Source: Cyanobacteria bacterium TGS_CYA1 (GTDB taxonomy: Bacteria > Cyanobacteriota > Vampirovibrionia > Obscuribacterales > Obscuribacteraceae). From it: a DNA stretch of 64,000 nt. The stretch is taken from contig JAHCIQ010000001.1 in assembly GCA_026129135.1 (NCBI GenBank), forward strand, positions 434,001 through 498,000. Direction: 5' to 3'. Each line of letters opens with the position of its first letter. The stretch's first letter is position 1. Shown here piece by piece: positions 3,465 to 9,069 of the stretch. The position numbers and the translations under genes were made by a program. The notes below the pieces were generated by a model. It did no database searches and was not told the origin of the DNA. It saw only the letters and a list, made by a program, of their open reading frames with translations.

Positions 3465-4127
3465 TCAATCGAGAACATCTGGTTTAGGCCACACTCTAAA
3501 AAATGCTTTTCCGATGACGCGGCTTTGATCTATTGGTCCATAAATATGGCTGTCCTCTGAATTGTTGCGATTATCTCCCAAGACAAATAGTTGACCTTTG
3601 GGTACCACGATTTGGTTGTTGCAAACTTCGAGCCCTGAGAAAGGCTGAATGAACTGTCGATAGGTGTTACTGCCGCATATATCACCAAGTACTTTTAGGT
3701 CGTATTCAGGCTTTTCGAGGATGTATTTTTCTTCGAGCAATTTGCCGTTAACAAAAACACCAATCTCGGATTTGATTTCTATGGTATCACCTGGTAAACC
3801 TATAACTCGTTTGATGAAAGCAACTTCGTTTGGAAAGATAGGAAGACCGGTTAATCTTCCCATCACTGCTGAAGGAGCATTACTTAGTTCGTGCCCACCC
3901 ATCTCAATAGGTGGGGGATAAAAAGTGATTATGTCGCCTCTTTTGAATTGCTTTTTCCACACTGTCACTTTTTCGGTCAATAATCTGTCATTTACTTTGA
4001 GCGTAGGCAGCATTGCTTCGCTTGGGATATATCGGGCTTCCAAAAAAAATCTCATCGTGATGAGTAGCGCAAAAGTTGTCACTATTCCTGCGATTGCGGT
4101 TCCTGTCACAGCAAGCAATGACTTCAT
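3465..4127 (-). CDS. lepB: Signal peptidase I homologue with Ala at the nucleophile position
   Basis: Type I signal peptidase (S26) homologue: one N-terminal membrane segment (residues 6-28) and a periplasmic domain. Box B reads IPSEAMLPTL (34-43). In E. coli LepB the box is PSGSM, with the second Ser (just before Met) as nucleophile; here that residue is Ala38 (codon GCA, complement of 4014-4016). The general-base Lys is kept (K106 in IKRVIGLPGD) and box E is kept (GDNRNNSEDS). As read, the catalytic dyad is incomplete while every other box is intact. It could be an inactive or chaperone-like paralogue, could use Ser36, or could belong to a subfamily with this change. It overlaps the upstream membrane-protein gene by 4 nt. 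The family is certain; activity is doubtful. Confidence 0.9.
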   Translation of the reverse strand: MKSLLAVTGTAIAGIVTTFALLITMRFFLEARYIPSEAMLPTLKVNDRLLTEKVTVWKKQFKRGDIITFYPPPIEMGGHELSNAPSAVMGRLTGLPIFPNEVAFIKRVIGLPGDTIEIKSEIGVFVNGKLLEEKYILEKPEYDLKVLGDICGSNTYRQFIQPFSGLEVCNNQIVVPKGQLFVLGDNRNNSEDSHIYGPIDQSRVIGKAFFRVWPKPDVLD

Positions 4128-4741
4128 CTTTCAGTAGCTCCGCTTCTAGCTGCATACAGGCGGCAAAAGAAAATGGTAATTACAAACTCGAGTATTAGAG
4201 CGAAAATCGCAGTTAAGTAATCGAGCAGACCCACGACCACGAAAATTAAAAGGATTGGAAGGAATAATCCAGCGGTCATTTTAAAACTGGTATTAATTGA
4301 TTCTATGGGTGACTTACCGTCGACCACGCATATCCAGCTTAAGGACAAGCGAACAGCAAGAATAATTCCTGGCACAATAAGAAGAACGAGCCCGGAAACA
4401 ACCGCAAGTGTGGCAAAAATTGTCGTGAGTAGTGAATAAAGACCCTTTTTAAAATCGATTCGAAGATCTTTCCAATTCTCTTTTCGTTTTAGAGAAATTG
4501 TCTTGAAGAACTTGAGATAAGGAACTAGAAGAAAAGAAGTTGTTGCCAAACTAGCTAAGACAAAGGCCAATAAGTTCCAGCCTTTAAAATCGATTAAGAG
4601 GGCAAAGGTTATACAAGCCACGACTAACGGTATCCAGCAGCGCAAAAAATAAACGACTGATAGTGAAAGCCAGTTGTCCCTGAAGACCTGCCAAGATTCT
4701 TTCAATTCATTTATTGGATTGAATTGACTGTCGTTTTGCAT
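4124..4741 (-). CDS. Multi-pass membrane protein (YciC/DUF975-like)
   Basis: 205-residue integral membrane protein with about five or six hydrophobic helices. The cytoplasmic N-terminus reads NPINELKESWQVFRDNWLSL, and the middle holds the segment VPGIILAVRLSLSWICVVDG followed by KSPIESINTSFKMT. This 'PGI..A.R....P.V.DG..P.EA...S' pattern is typical of YciC/DUF975/GDPD-membrane-domain proteins, whose biochemical role is not settled. Its stop overlaps the start of the signal peptidase homologue by 4 nt (ATGA arrangement), so the two form a coupled pair. Family assignment is by pattern only. Confidence 0.8.
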   Translation of the reverse strand: MQNDSQFNPINELKESWQVFRDNWLSLSVVYFLRCWIPLVVACITFALLIDFKGWNLLAFVLASLATTSFLLVPYLKFFKTISLKRKENWKDLRIDFKKGLYSLLTTIFATLAVVSGLVLLIVPGIILAVRLSLSWICVVDGKSPIESINTSFKMTAGLFLPILLIFVVVGLLDYLTAIFALILEFVITIFFCRLYAARSGATER

Positions 4742-6099: not shown

Positions 6100-8721
6100 T
6101 TATATTTTGAGCACCGTCACAGCGCATGGTGCGTTTCGTAGAACGAAATTGATAGTATGACCAAAGAAAAGGTTTTTGCCTAACTTGGGTTCGGCGCCAA
6201 GGACTATTAAGTCGATATTGTGCTGGTCTGCAGTCATAACTACAGCTTGGGCCGGAAGAGCTTTGGTTTGGACCATCAATGGGTCGAAATCGACGTCCAG
6301 AGCTTTGGATAAATCTTTGAGACTGGCTTCGATTTCTTTGTTTACGTGATTTTGAATTTTGATACCGCTTTGAGTGTATTCGCTATAAAGTTCGTCTACG
6401 TCAGATTCTACGATAGACAAACAGGTAACACTTGCATCGAGCGATTTTGCAAGTGAAATTGCGAATTCGGCTGCGGCTAAAGACAATTCACTTCCACTCA
6501 CTGGCACGAGCACCTTTTTAATTACTCTATTGCCGGTGGGATCTGGATCGTAAATAACCAGTGTATGATTTGTGGTATTGAGTATGACACTATCAACCAG
6601 TTCGCCAAAAACGTAATCGGCGTCTGCGGCAGGTTCGTCTGTCGCCATAATAATGAGGTCGTAGCCTCTATTTGCTTCTTCGGTGATTGCTTCAAGTTTG
6701 CTTTCCGAGGTTGCGGTTTTTTGCAGAAGGCTCACATATTTTTTATTCAAAATAGATGATATGAAAGAAAAAAGATGGTGTGGATCGGTGTCAGGTTCTT
6801 TAACCCAAAGTGCTGTAGTTTCGATCACTTGTGATTGCCCGATACTATTTAAGAGGTGTGATATGAAGGGATTTCTGCGTTTATCCGAAATCGGTAGCAG
6901 GACGCGTCTTATCGAACTCAAGATGGTTTGCGCTTTGCGCTCCTCTTGTTTTATGCGTTCTTTCTGCTCTTGTGTTACTTTCACTTTGCTCATGCACTTT
7001 TTCATCAATGGAGCAGTAACAGCCGTTGAGAAAAGGGAGACGAAAATCACTACTGCATACATATCGAGCGAAATGATATTGAGCGAATATCCTAACATGG
7101 CAAGAATTAGTCCCAATGAGCCTTTAGCATTTGCGCCAACGCCAACCGATAACGCTTCATGCGTACCGATACCAGTTAATCTCCCGGCAAGATAGCAAGT
7201 TGCCAGTTTGGACAAAATTGTTGCAAGCGAAATCAATATCGTTATGGTGCCAAGCATCGGGTCGAGAAGCGAACTCAAGTTGACGCTCAATCCAGATGAA
7301 GCAAAAAATATAGGGGCGAAAAAGCCCATGGTCACTGTTTCTAATGGTTTCACAACTTTGTGATTGATTACTGGAGCTTGCGAAAGAATAACACCAGCTG
7401 CAAATGCGCCAAGAACGATATGTACGCCAAGTGCTTGCGTGGTGGCGGCGCAAGATAAAAGCAAGACAACCATGGCTGTGATGAGTGCTTCTTTGCTCGA
7501 TACATGATCGTTGACCCATCTCAAAATAGTAAAGAAGACTGGTCTGCCAAAATACATGATGGCAAGAAAACATGCAGTGCCGATTATGGCAACCAATATT
7601 GGATTAGCGCCGCTGCCTTCTTGAGACCCAGACAAGACAACGATTACAGCAAGCAATAAACAACAAAGCAAATCGTGCACAAGAGATGTACCGATAACCA
7701 GTTGACCGGTATCGAGTTTGAGCATTTTCATGTCCATCAAAATTTTTGCCACCACCGGAACCGATGATGCGGCAAAAACTGTACCTATAAAAACAGCGAA
7801 GGCAAGCTTGTTTTGAGTGCTTCCCATCAAAACATCAGGCATCATCAAAGAGCCAAGCGCGCCAATAATAAGTGGACCTGCAAGACCGATAGTCCCAAAA
7901 TAAAGGAGAGGTTTGCCAAGTTTTTTGAGCATTGATGCATCGGTTTCCATTCCTGTCATCATGAGCAGGAATGAAACGCCAATCCAGGAAACGACTTCGA
8001 TTAGTCGCGACTGTGAGCCGTCGTTTGGAAAAAGCATATTTGAAAGGTCTGGCATGAAAGCGCCAAAAAAGGTCTGACCCAAAAGTAATCCAGCAAAAAT
8101 TTGACCAATGATTGCAGGCTGTCCCAGGCGGACCATAATTTCGCCGCAGACGAGAGAAGTGAAAAGCAGAATCGCAATCTCTATAAATAGAAGGAGAACT
8201 GCGTGCTCGCTCAGGTTGGAATTGGTCTTTTTCTCGCCCTGGGGGGCGGTTCCGGCTTTTTGAGCCTCTTTTTTCACATCCTTTATATGTGATCTGATTT
8301 TCTCCATCCAATCATTGGCTAAAGCGTCGGCAGATTTTTCGCTTACCTGGCAATCAAGGGGACGGACGCTGCAAATAATGCTCTCGTCCAGACGAATAAC
8401 GGGTATTCCGTCTATACCGGTTTTTATATTCAACTGATTGAGGTCGGCTCGCGGGTCGGCAACTATATCTTCCAGGCGCTCATTTATGCGTTCGCCACGC
8501 TCAAGTGCCGAAATGAACCTTGTATTAGTTACAGAAAAGATTTTTTCTTTGCCTACATATATGTCGCAAAACTCTGTGGGCTCATTGCCATACTGGTAAT
8601 TGGTTTGAGCACAAGACGGCAGAGGTGTTAAGGCTGTCCATAAGAGGACGAGCAAAACAAGCAGTCTAGTTTTTAGTGCTTTTGAGTCCGTGTTTTTCAA
8701 GCAATTTCTCCGAAAACTCAT
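6100..8721 (-). CDS. CPA2 cation/proton antiporter with two C-terminal USP domains
   Basis: A KefB/Na+/H+-exchanger-type antiporter with unusual ends. After a signal-like segment (TRLLVLLVLLWTALTPLPSCAQ) comes a periplasmic region of about 150 residues carrying a DPRADLNQLNIKTGIDGIP stretch. The antiporter core of about 12 helices follows (for example GQIFAGLLLGQTFFG, VHDLLCCLLL, GVGANAKGSLGLILAMLGY). The last 260 residues hold two universal-stress-protein-like units; the first is degenerate, and the second begins KKVLVPVSGSELSLAAAEFA and ends in the usual APCAVTVL strand. It probably exchanges K+ or Na+ for H+ under control of a nucleotide bound to the USP domains. The frame is open up to 8850. 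I chose the ATG at 8721, but a TTG at 8700 has a better-placed GGAG. Confidence 0.9.
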   Translation of the reverse strand: MSFRRNCLKNTDSKALKTRLLVLLVLLWTALTPLPSCAQTNYQYGNEPTEFCDIYVGKEKIFSVTNTRFISALERGERINERLEDIVADPRADLNQLNIKTGIDGIPVIRLDESIICSVRPLDCQVSEKSADALANDWMEKIRSHIKDVKKEAQKAGTAPQGEKKTNSNLSEHAVLLLFIEIAILLFTSLVCGEIMVRLGQPAIIGQIFAGLLLGQTFFGAFMPDLSNMLFPNDGSQSRLIEVVSWIGVSFLLMMTGMETDASMLKKLGKPLLYFGTIGLAGPLIIGALGSLMMPDVLMGSTQNKLAFAVFIGTVFAASSVPVVAKILMDMKMLKLDTGQLVIGTSLVHDLLCCLLLAVIVVLSGSQEGSGANPILVAIIGTACFLAIMYFGRPVFFTILRWVNDHVSSKEALITAMVVLLLSCAATTQALGVHIVLGAFAAGVILSQAPVINHKVVKPLETVTMGFFAPIFFASSGLSVNLSSLLDPMLGTITILISLATILSKLATCYLAGRLTGIGTHEALSVGVGANAKGSLGLILAMLGYSLNIISLDMYAVVIFVSLFSTAVTAPLMKKCMSKVKVTQEQKERIKQEERKAQTILSSIRRVLLPISDKRRNPFISHLLNSIGQSQVIETTALWVKEPDTDPHHLFSFISSILNKKYVSLLQKTATSESKLEAITEEANRGYDLIIMATDEPAADADYVFGELVDSVILNTTNHTLVIYDPDPTGNRVIKKVLVPVSGSELSLAAAEFAISLAKSLDASVTCLSIVESDVDELYSEYTQSGIKIQNHVNKEIEASLKDLSKALDVDFDPLMVQTKALPAQAVVMTADQHNIDLIVLGAEPKLGKNLFFGHTINFVLRNAPCAVTVLKI

Positions 8722-9069
8722 ACTAACATTTGCTGTTCCAGTTGCCTTGTGAGTACACGTAAAAAATGACGCTGCACTGTCCGGGCTACAGTATGGAATA
8801 CATTTCTTTTTTGTGGTCAAGGTGAAAAAATGTGTCCGGGAAGTCCGCAAAAGTCAGTAAAAATAGGATTGTATGGCGCTTTTGTTGTCAAAAAAATTTT
8901 TTCAGTTTTGTATTCTACAGGCTACAAAAGCTATTGATCTATCGGGTGGCGGGTAGTATATTGAATACAGTGACACCCTGAAGTTCACCAAAACAAATCA
9001 ATCAACCAGCAAATGAGCGCCAACTGAGAAACGGTTGGGCCCGACTTTTGCCATCCAAGGAGATTCACA
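8722..9069. other. Gene-free region between antiporter and sigma factor
   Basis: About 350 nt with no convincing gene. It holds the likely antiporter promoter on the minus strand, a run of A and T near 8890-8902, a good plus-strand promoter at 8934-8962, and then a leader of about 100 nt before the sigma gene. In the leader GCGCCAAC (9017-9024) can pair with GTTGGGC (9034-9040). A Shine-Dalgarno AAGGAGA lies just before the sigma ATG at 9070. Confidence 0.6.
8934..8962 (+). promoter_or_regulatory. Candidate sigma-70 promoter for the sigma factor gene
   Basis: TTGATC at 8934-8939 and TATATT at 8957-8962 are separated by 17 nt, close to the consensus layout. Transcription would start near 8969, giving a leader of about 100 nt. 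Assigned by eye only. Confidence 0.5.

What the first reader, a model, noticed from the sequence alone, without database searches (positions are those of the whole stretch)
3465..4127. Signal peptidase I homologue with Ala in place of the catalytic Ser
Box B reads IPSEAMLPTL. In E. coli LepB the Ser just before Met is the nucleophile; here the codon is GCA (Ala38). The partner Lys106 and all other boxes are intact, so it is not decaying at random. It may be a dead paralogue with a binding or regulatory role, or use Ser36, or belong to a known variant subfamily.
Basis: partly seen in the sequence, partly recalled or inferred. Interest (0 to 1): 0.6.

Follow-up and report, generated by a model that had tools for sequence, protein, structure and literature searches.

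The report
Signal peptidase look-alike without its nucleophile
This gene encodes a protein built like the enzyme that trims signal peptides off exported proteins, but its key catalytic serine is alanine; relatives lost the same residue several separate times and often keep the gene beside a membrane-protein gene, which suggests the protein now binds rather than cuts.

Summary
In detail: window 3465-4127 (-) encodes a 220-aa type I signal peptidase homologue with Ala38 (GCA, 4016-4014) at the nucleophile position. Lys106 and the other boxes are intact. The genome (order Obscuribacterales, non-photosynthetic Cyanobacteriota) has a normal LepB elsewhere (PSASM plus Lys) and a third homologue lacking both Ser and Lys.

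The gene belongs to a well-supported clade of short paralogues (16 sequences, branch support 100/99). In this clade the nucleophile is Ala (3), Thr (2), Asn (3), Asp (1) or Ser (7), and one Ser member has lost the Lys. All 65 canonical homologues keep Ser. A single loss of Ser is rejected (p-AU 0.001). The protein keeps 51 of 56 canonical-invariant residues, and Thr and Asn relatives show dN/dS of 0.06-0.18, so free decay is unlikely. In six genomes the paralogue follows a YciC/UPF0259-like membrane-protein gene; here the two genes overlap by 4 nt.

Best reading: a membrane-anchored pseudo-peptidase that may bind signal-peptide-like segments or membrane partners, functionally comparable to Streptococcus SipA but not a SipA. 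Catalytic death is strongly inferred; the binding role is a hypothesis. A parallel Ser-to-Ala change exists in a photosynthetic cyanobacterial family. New variant of a known kind.

The parts
3465..4127 (-). Divergent short type I signal peptidase (S26A) paralogue, 220 aa, with the nucleophile Ser replaced by Ala
4014..4016 (-). Ala38 codon GCA at the catalytic Ser position (PSEAM)
   Evidence: Ser in 65/65 canonical homologues
4020..4022 (-). Ser36 codon AGC (PSxxM serine, not the nucleophile in active SPases; present in normal LepBs too)
3810..3812 (-). Lys106 codon AAA, catalytic general-base position, retained
3546..3578 (-). Box E GDNRNNSEDSH, retained
4044..4124 (-). N-terminal membrane-anchor helix (residues 2-28 in the model)
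4124..4741 (-). Upstream co-directional gene, 205-aa multi-helix membrane protein, weakly YciC/UPF0259-like; its stop overlaps the S26 start by 4 nt; the pairing is seen beside divergent S26 paralogues in five other genomes

Best explanation
The gene encodes a pseudo-signal-peptidase: a membrane-anchored type I signal peptidase fold whose nucleophile is gone while the remaining box residues and the fold are kept. Shown by sequence: the Ser-to-Ala change, retention of Lys and of boxes C-E, a normal LepB in the same genome, repeated loss of the dyad in the paralogue clade, and linkage to a membrane-protein gene. Inferred from published SPase biochemistry: without the Ser it cannot cleave pre-proteins. 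Hypothesis: made together with its membrane-protein partner, it holds signal-peptide-like or membrane-proximal segments in the retained cleft and helps place, retain or assemble an envelope protein, while LepB does the cutting.
For: Normal LepB on contig C9. 16-row paralogue clade split from canonical LepB with 100/99 support; nucleophile A3/T2/N3/D1/S7, with Lys lost in one Ser member; a single origin of non-Ser rejected, p-AU 0.001. 51 of 56 canonical-invariant residues kept; the only changes are E10T, S38A, V68T, W196Y, F198P. Purifying selection on Thr and Asn relatives, dN/dS 0.175 and 0.06. Confident SPase fold, pLDDT 93.7; best fold matches are SpsB, including the S36A mutant, then SipA with TM-score 0.82 on the SipA length. 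The membrane-protein pair recurs in six genomes, and five of the nine other best order-wide matches to the partner lie next to a divergent S26. Precedents: SipA lacks Ser and Lys, keeps the cleft and is essential for pilus polymerisation (PMC4049620); SpsA is inactive (PMC12445088).
Against: No activity, binding or interaction data. The client is unknown and the neighbourhood beyond the partner gene is not conserved. Six of the 16 clade members keep both Ser and Lys, so the clade as a whole may still contain active peptidases. The gene's closest homologues are only about 55-60% identical and synonymous sites are saturated, so selection on this very gene could not be measured.
Confidence: 0.62

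Rival explanations
1. A paralogue freed from selection and on its way out: the nucleophile went first because the gene no longer matters, and the open frame survives by chance.
For: Many different letters at the nucleophile (A, T, N, D); long branches; patchy presence across the order; one fused relative elsewhere is broken by in-frame stops (L215).
Against: 51 of 56 conserved residues kept, with the Ser column one of only five lost; dN/dS 0.06-0.18 in relatives that already lack Ser, Asn kept in three genomes of one genus at near-saturated synonymous divergence; the gene pair is retained over large divergence.
Confidence: 0.17
2. A non-cutting subunit that works on the cell's own LepB: it pairs with the active copy, or competes for substrates, and so tunes signal-peptide processing.
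For: The genomes with dead copies that I examined also hold a normal LepB; in a photosynthetic family the Ala copy lies directly downstream of a PSGSM copy in three genomes.
Against: In the order of this genome the paralogue is not next to lepB but next to a different membrane protein; no evidence for SPase I heterodimers here.
Confidence: 0.1
3. Still a peptidase, using Ser36 or another residue with Lys106, or (in the Thr relatives) Thr as nucleophile.
For: Lys106 and box E are conserved even where Ser is gone; Thr could in principle replace Ser.
Against: Ser36 also exists in normal LepBs and aligns with Gly in SpsB, so it is not a replacement; Ala, Asn and Asp occur at the site; the Ala form of SpsB was made as a catalytic mutant (PMC4704075).
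Confidence: 0.06
4. A single-base error in this assembly; the true codon is a Ser codon.
For: One base change would be enough; reads were not available.
Against: Sister paralogues from other assemblies carry Ala (L169, L123), Thr, Asn or Asp at the same column.
Confidence: 0.03

Closest known systems
Streptococcus pyogenes SipA (pilus-linked SPase-like protein, PDB 4n31)
   Same: SPase I fold without working catalytic residues, membrane-anchored; fold match TM-score 0.82 on the SipA length
   Different: SipA has Asp/Gly at the dyad and sits in a sortase pilus cluster (PMC4049620); here only Ser is changed, Lys is kept, and the neighbour is a YciC-like membrane protein
Staphylococcus aureus SpsA
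   Same: Inactive SPase I paralogue in a genome with an active SPase (PMC12445088)
   Different: SpsA lacks two catalytic residues; this protein lacks one and keeps the Lys
Bacterial type I signal peptidase LepB/SpsB (S26A)
   Same: Fold, N-terminal anchor, boxes B-E, Lys
   Different: No nucleophile
Multi-TM-fused and tandem PSGAM S26 homologues in a photosynthetic cyanobacterial family (f19, this work)
   Same: Ser-to-Ala with Lys kept, coupled to a multi-helix membrane region or to a Ser copy
   Different: Fused in one chain or in tandem with LepB, and the membrane region was not shown to be related

Membership tests
Peptidase S26 / SPase I fold family (PF10502, TIGR02227) | Score above the curated cut-off | tested here: met
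   144 vs 22.9 bits; 130.7 vs 47 bits
Peptidase S26 / SPase I fold family (PF10502, TIGR02227) | N-terminal membrane anchor followed by the SPase beta fold | tested here: met
   AF2 model, helix 2-28, pLDDT 93.7; Foldseek hits at E<=0.001 are all SPases or SipA
Active bacterial type I signal peptidase | Catalytic Ser before Met in box B | tested here: not met
   Ala38
Active bacterial type I signal peptidase | Catalytic Lys in box D | tested here: met
   Lys106
Active bacterial type I signal peptidase | Box E GDN...S.DS | tested here: met
   GDNRNNSEDSH, residues 184-194
Active bacterial type I signal peptidase | Cleaves pre-proteins | not testable with these tools
   needs an assay
SipA-type pilus assembly protein | Both Ser and Lys of the dyad replaced | tested here: not met
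   Lys106 retained
SipA-type pilus assembly protein | Located in a sortase/pilin gene cluster | tested here: not met
   neighbours are a YciC-like membrane protein, TPR proteins, a phosphoglucomutase and a Na/H exchanger-Usp protein
YciC/UPF0259 family (partner gene) | Score above the curated cut-off | tested here: not met
   27.3 vs 31.4 bits in Pfam; 34 vs 227 in NCBIfam; a resemblance only

The most novel reading that the evidence does not exclude
Cyanobacteriota repeatedly turn signal peptidase I into a non-cutting, membrane-protein-coupled peptide-binding module (a two-gene pair in Obscuribacterales, a single fused chain in a photosynthetic family) that handles a class of envelope or membrane proteins, a bacterial counterpart of pseudo-proteases such as iRhoms.
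Probability: 0.25. Interest if true: 0.75.

Novelty: new variant of a known kind. Interest (0 to 1): 0.5.

Why it matters
The inactive signal peptidase homologues I know of, and those in the papers found here, come from Gram-positive bacteria. Here a whole paralogue clade in a diderm phylum lost the nucleophile several times, mostly keeping the catalytic Lys and the fold, with a recurrent membrane-protein neighbour. Database models (TIGR02227 'signal peptidase I') call the members I scanned active enzymes, so annotation overstates signal peptidase counts. The set gives a natural test of what an SPase fold can do without cutting.

Tried and rejected
Ala conserved across the clade: rejected, the site is A, T, N, D or S. 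One common loss of Ser: rejected, p-AU 0.001. The TPR gene family first seen near several paralogues (cluster C2): rejected as a specific partner because it is ordinary TPR sequence similarity. dN/dS for the window gene itself: not measurable, synonymous sites saturated. Promoter and terminator scan: no more sites than in shuffles. Papers on Obscuribacter signal peptidases: none in the library. Literature on a Ser-to-Thr SPase I: nothing relevant found. S. sanguinis SPase paper: no information on catalytic residues.

Full report
Observation. The minus-strand ORF 3465-4127 is an intact 220-aa protein starting with ATG. Box B reads IPSEAMLPTL; residue 38, the residue before Met, is Ala (GCA, 4016-4014). 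Lys106 (in FIKRVIGLPGD) and box E (GDNRNNSEDSH) are intact. The protein passes the curated cut-offs for Pfam Peptidase_S26 and NCBIfam signal peptidase I. In a phmmer alignment to solved structures, Ala38 falls on the engineered Ala of the S36A mutant of S. aureus SpsB, PDB 4wvg (the mutant is described as a catalytic mutant in PMC4704075).

Genome context. The window lies in a 4.26-Mb genome of 16 contigs, 91% complete. The nearest named homologues come from Candidatus Obscuribacter, Obscuribacterales and Melainabacteria records, so I place the organism in Obscuribacterales. The genome holds three S26 homologues: a canonical one on contig C9 with PSASM and Lys, this one, and one on C11 with SSSAM, Lys to Arg and box E lost, carrying a TPR tail. 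The cell therefore has a normal LepB.

Survey of relatives. I searched 60 relatives and then the 53 held genomes of the order, took out the paralogous loci and aligned 94 distinct S26 domains. All 65 canonical copies have Ser at the nucleophile column. A tree made without the two catalytic columns separates 16 short divergent paralogues from the canonical set with support 100/99. In the 16, the nucleophile is Ala in three (this gene, L169, L123), Thr in two, Asn in three, Asp in one and Ser in seven; one of the seven has Lys replaced by Thr (L121), so ten of 16 lack an intact dyad. Holding all non-Ser rows as one clade is rejected (p-AU 0.001), so Ser was lost more than once; holding this gene with the two Thr rows is not rejected, and neither is holding together all members with the membrane-protein neighbour (p-AU 0.33). 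Branching order inside the clade is mostly unresolved.

Constraint. Of 56 columns that are at least 95% conserved in canonical LepB, the window protein keeps 51; the five changes are E10T, S38A, V68T, W196Y and F198P. For relatives that already lack Ser, dN/dS is 0.175 (Thr pair) and 0.06 (an Asn pair, near saturation), against 0.016-0.03 for close canonical pairs. These genes are under purifying selection, weaker than LepB. For the window gene itself, synonymous sites are saturated and no ratio can be given.

Partner gene. Directly upstream, and overlapping the start by 4 nt (ATGA), lies a gene for a 205-aa membrane protein (4124-4741). It resembles YciC/UPF0259 only below the curated cut-offs. 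Homologues sit directly upstream of divergent S26 paralogues in five other genomes: G066, G013, G003, G070 and G062. When the partner is searched across the order, the three strongest matches (self included) and five of the nine listed best non-self matches lie at those places. The pairing is therefore recurrent. The S26 members in these pairs are A/K, T/K, T/K, S/T, S/K and S/K at the dyad, so the dyad was broken there in three different ways.

Structure. AlphaFold2 with 38 family sequences gives mean pLDDT 93.7 and pTM 0.88: an anchor helix (2-28) followed by the SPase beta fold. Foldseek finds SpsB first (4wvi, 4wvg), then SipA (4n31, TM-score 0.82 on the SipA length), then E. coli LepB. 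The coordinates could not be inspected here, so the state of the peptide cleft is inferred from sequence conservation, not measured.

Mechanism. Shown: loss of Ser, retention of the remainder, a normal LepB alongside, recurrent loss in the clade, recurrent neighbour. Inferred from established SPase I chemistry (Ser nucleophile, Lys base; PMC4049620, PMC12445088): no peptidase activity. Hypothesis: a binding or assembly role with the membrane partner. The best precedent is SipA, which lacks both dyad residues, keeps the peptide cleft and is essential for pilus polymerisation; mutating its Asp and nearby Lys had no visible effect. Ser36 as a substitute nucleophile is unlikely, because it is present in the normal LepBs and is Gly in SpsB.

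Wider pattern. A PSxAM DNA pattern over 386 Cyanobacteriota genomes returned 15 places, of which five belong to S26 proteins: this gene and four in one photosynthetic family, f19. In f19, 10 of 145 genomes carry the Ala motif. Two architectures occur: a short copy directly downstream of a PSGSM copy, and a chain with about 170-190 residues of multi-helix membrane sequence before the S26 domain. The fused form was found in eight of 60 genomes; six have Ala, one has Ser and Lys, and one has Lys to Ser and in-frame stops. Change of the nucleophile to Ala with Lys kept has thus arisen separately, again coupled to membrane sequence.

Verdict. The finding is real and coherent: a pseudo-signal-peptidase in a clade with recurrent loss of the nucleophile. 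It is a new variant of a known kind (SipA, SpsA), with a new lineage and a new neighbour. The binding function is unproven. Decay is the main rival; sequencing error and residual catalysis are unlikely.

Noticed in passing
L003:1459-2565 and L143 (own genome contig C11); L131, L133, L134, L171, L137 in relatives: A third S26 group with the S26 domain followed by a C-terminal tail, with TPRs in the four members scanned (L003, L131, L133, L171); most have Ala at the nucleophile, Lys to Arg or Gln, and box E lost; up to 843 aa.
   Followed up: partly
L176, L177, L194-L196 (G403, G343, G551): In a photosynthetic cyanobacterial family a PSGAM S26 copy lies directly downstream of a PSGSM copy; in G551 the PSGSM copy is frame-broken (203 + 137 aa) while the Ala copy is intact.
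   Followed up: partly
L178, L179, L189-L193, L197, L198, L209-L216: S26 domain behind about 170-190 residues of multi-helix membrane sequence with no Pfam match; nucleophile Ala in most.
   Followed up: partly
L128, L129, L165: S26 paralogue with Asn at the nucleophile and Lys kept, with conserved gene order in three genomes of one genus; neighbours look EutA/EutB-like and DsbA-like by eye only; dN/dS about 0.06 for one pair.
   Followed up: partly
window 6100-8850 (-): A Na/H exchanger domain fused to a C-terminal universal stress protein domain (916 aa).
   Followed up: no
L103, L139-L141, L098, L099, L172: Several Obscuribacterales genomes carry two normal Ser-Lys LepB copies in tandem.
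   Followed up: no
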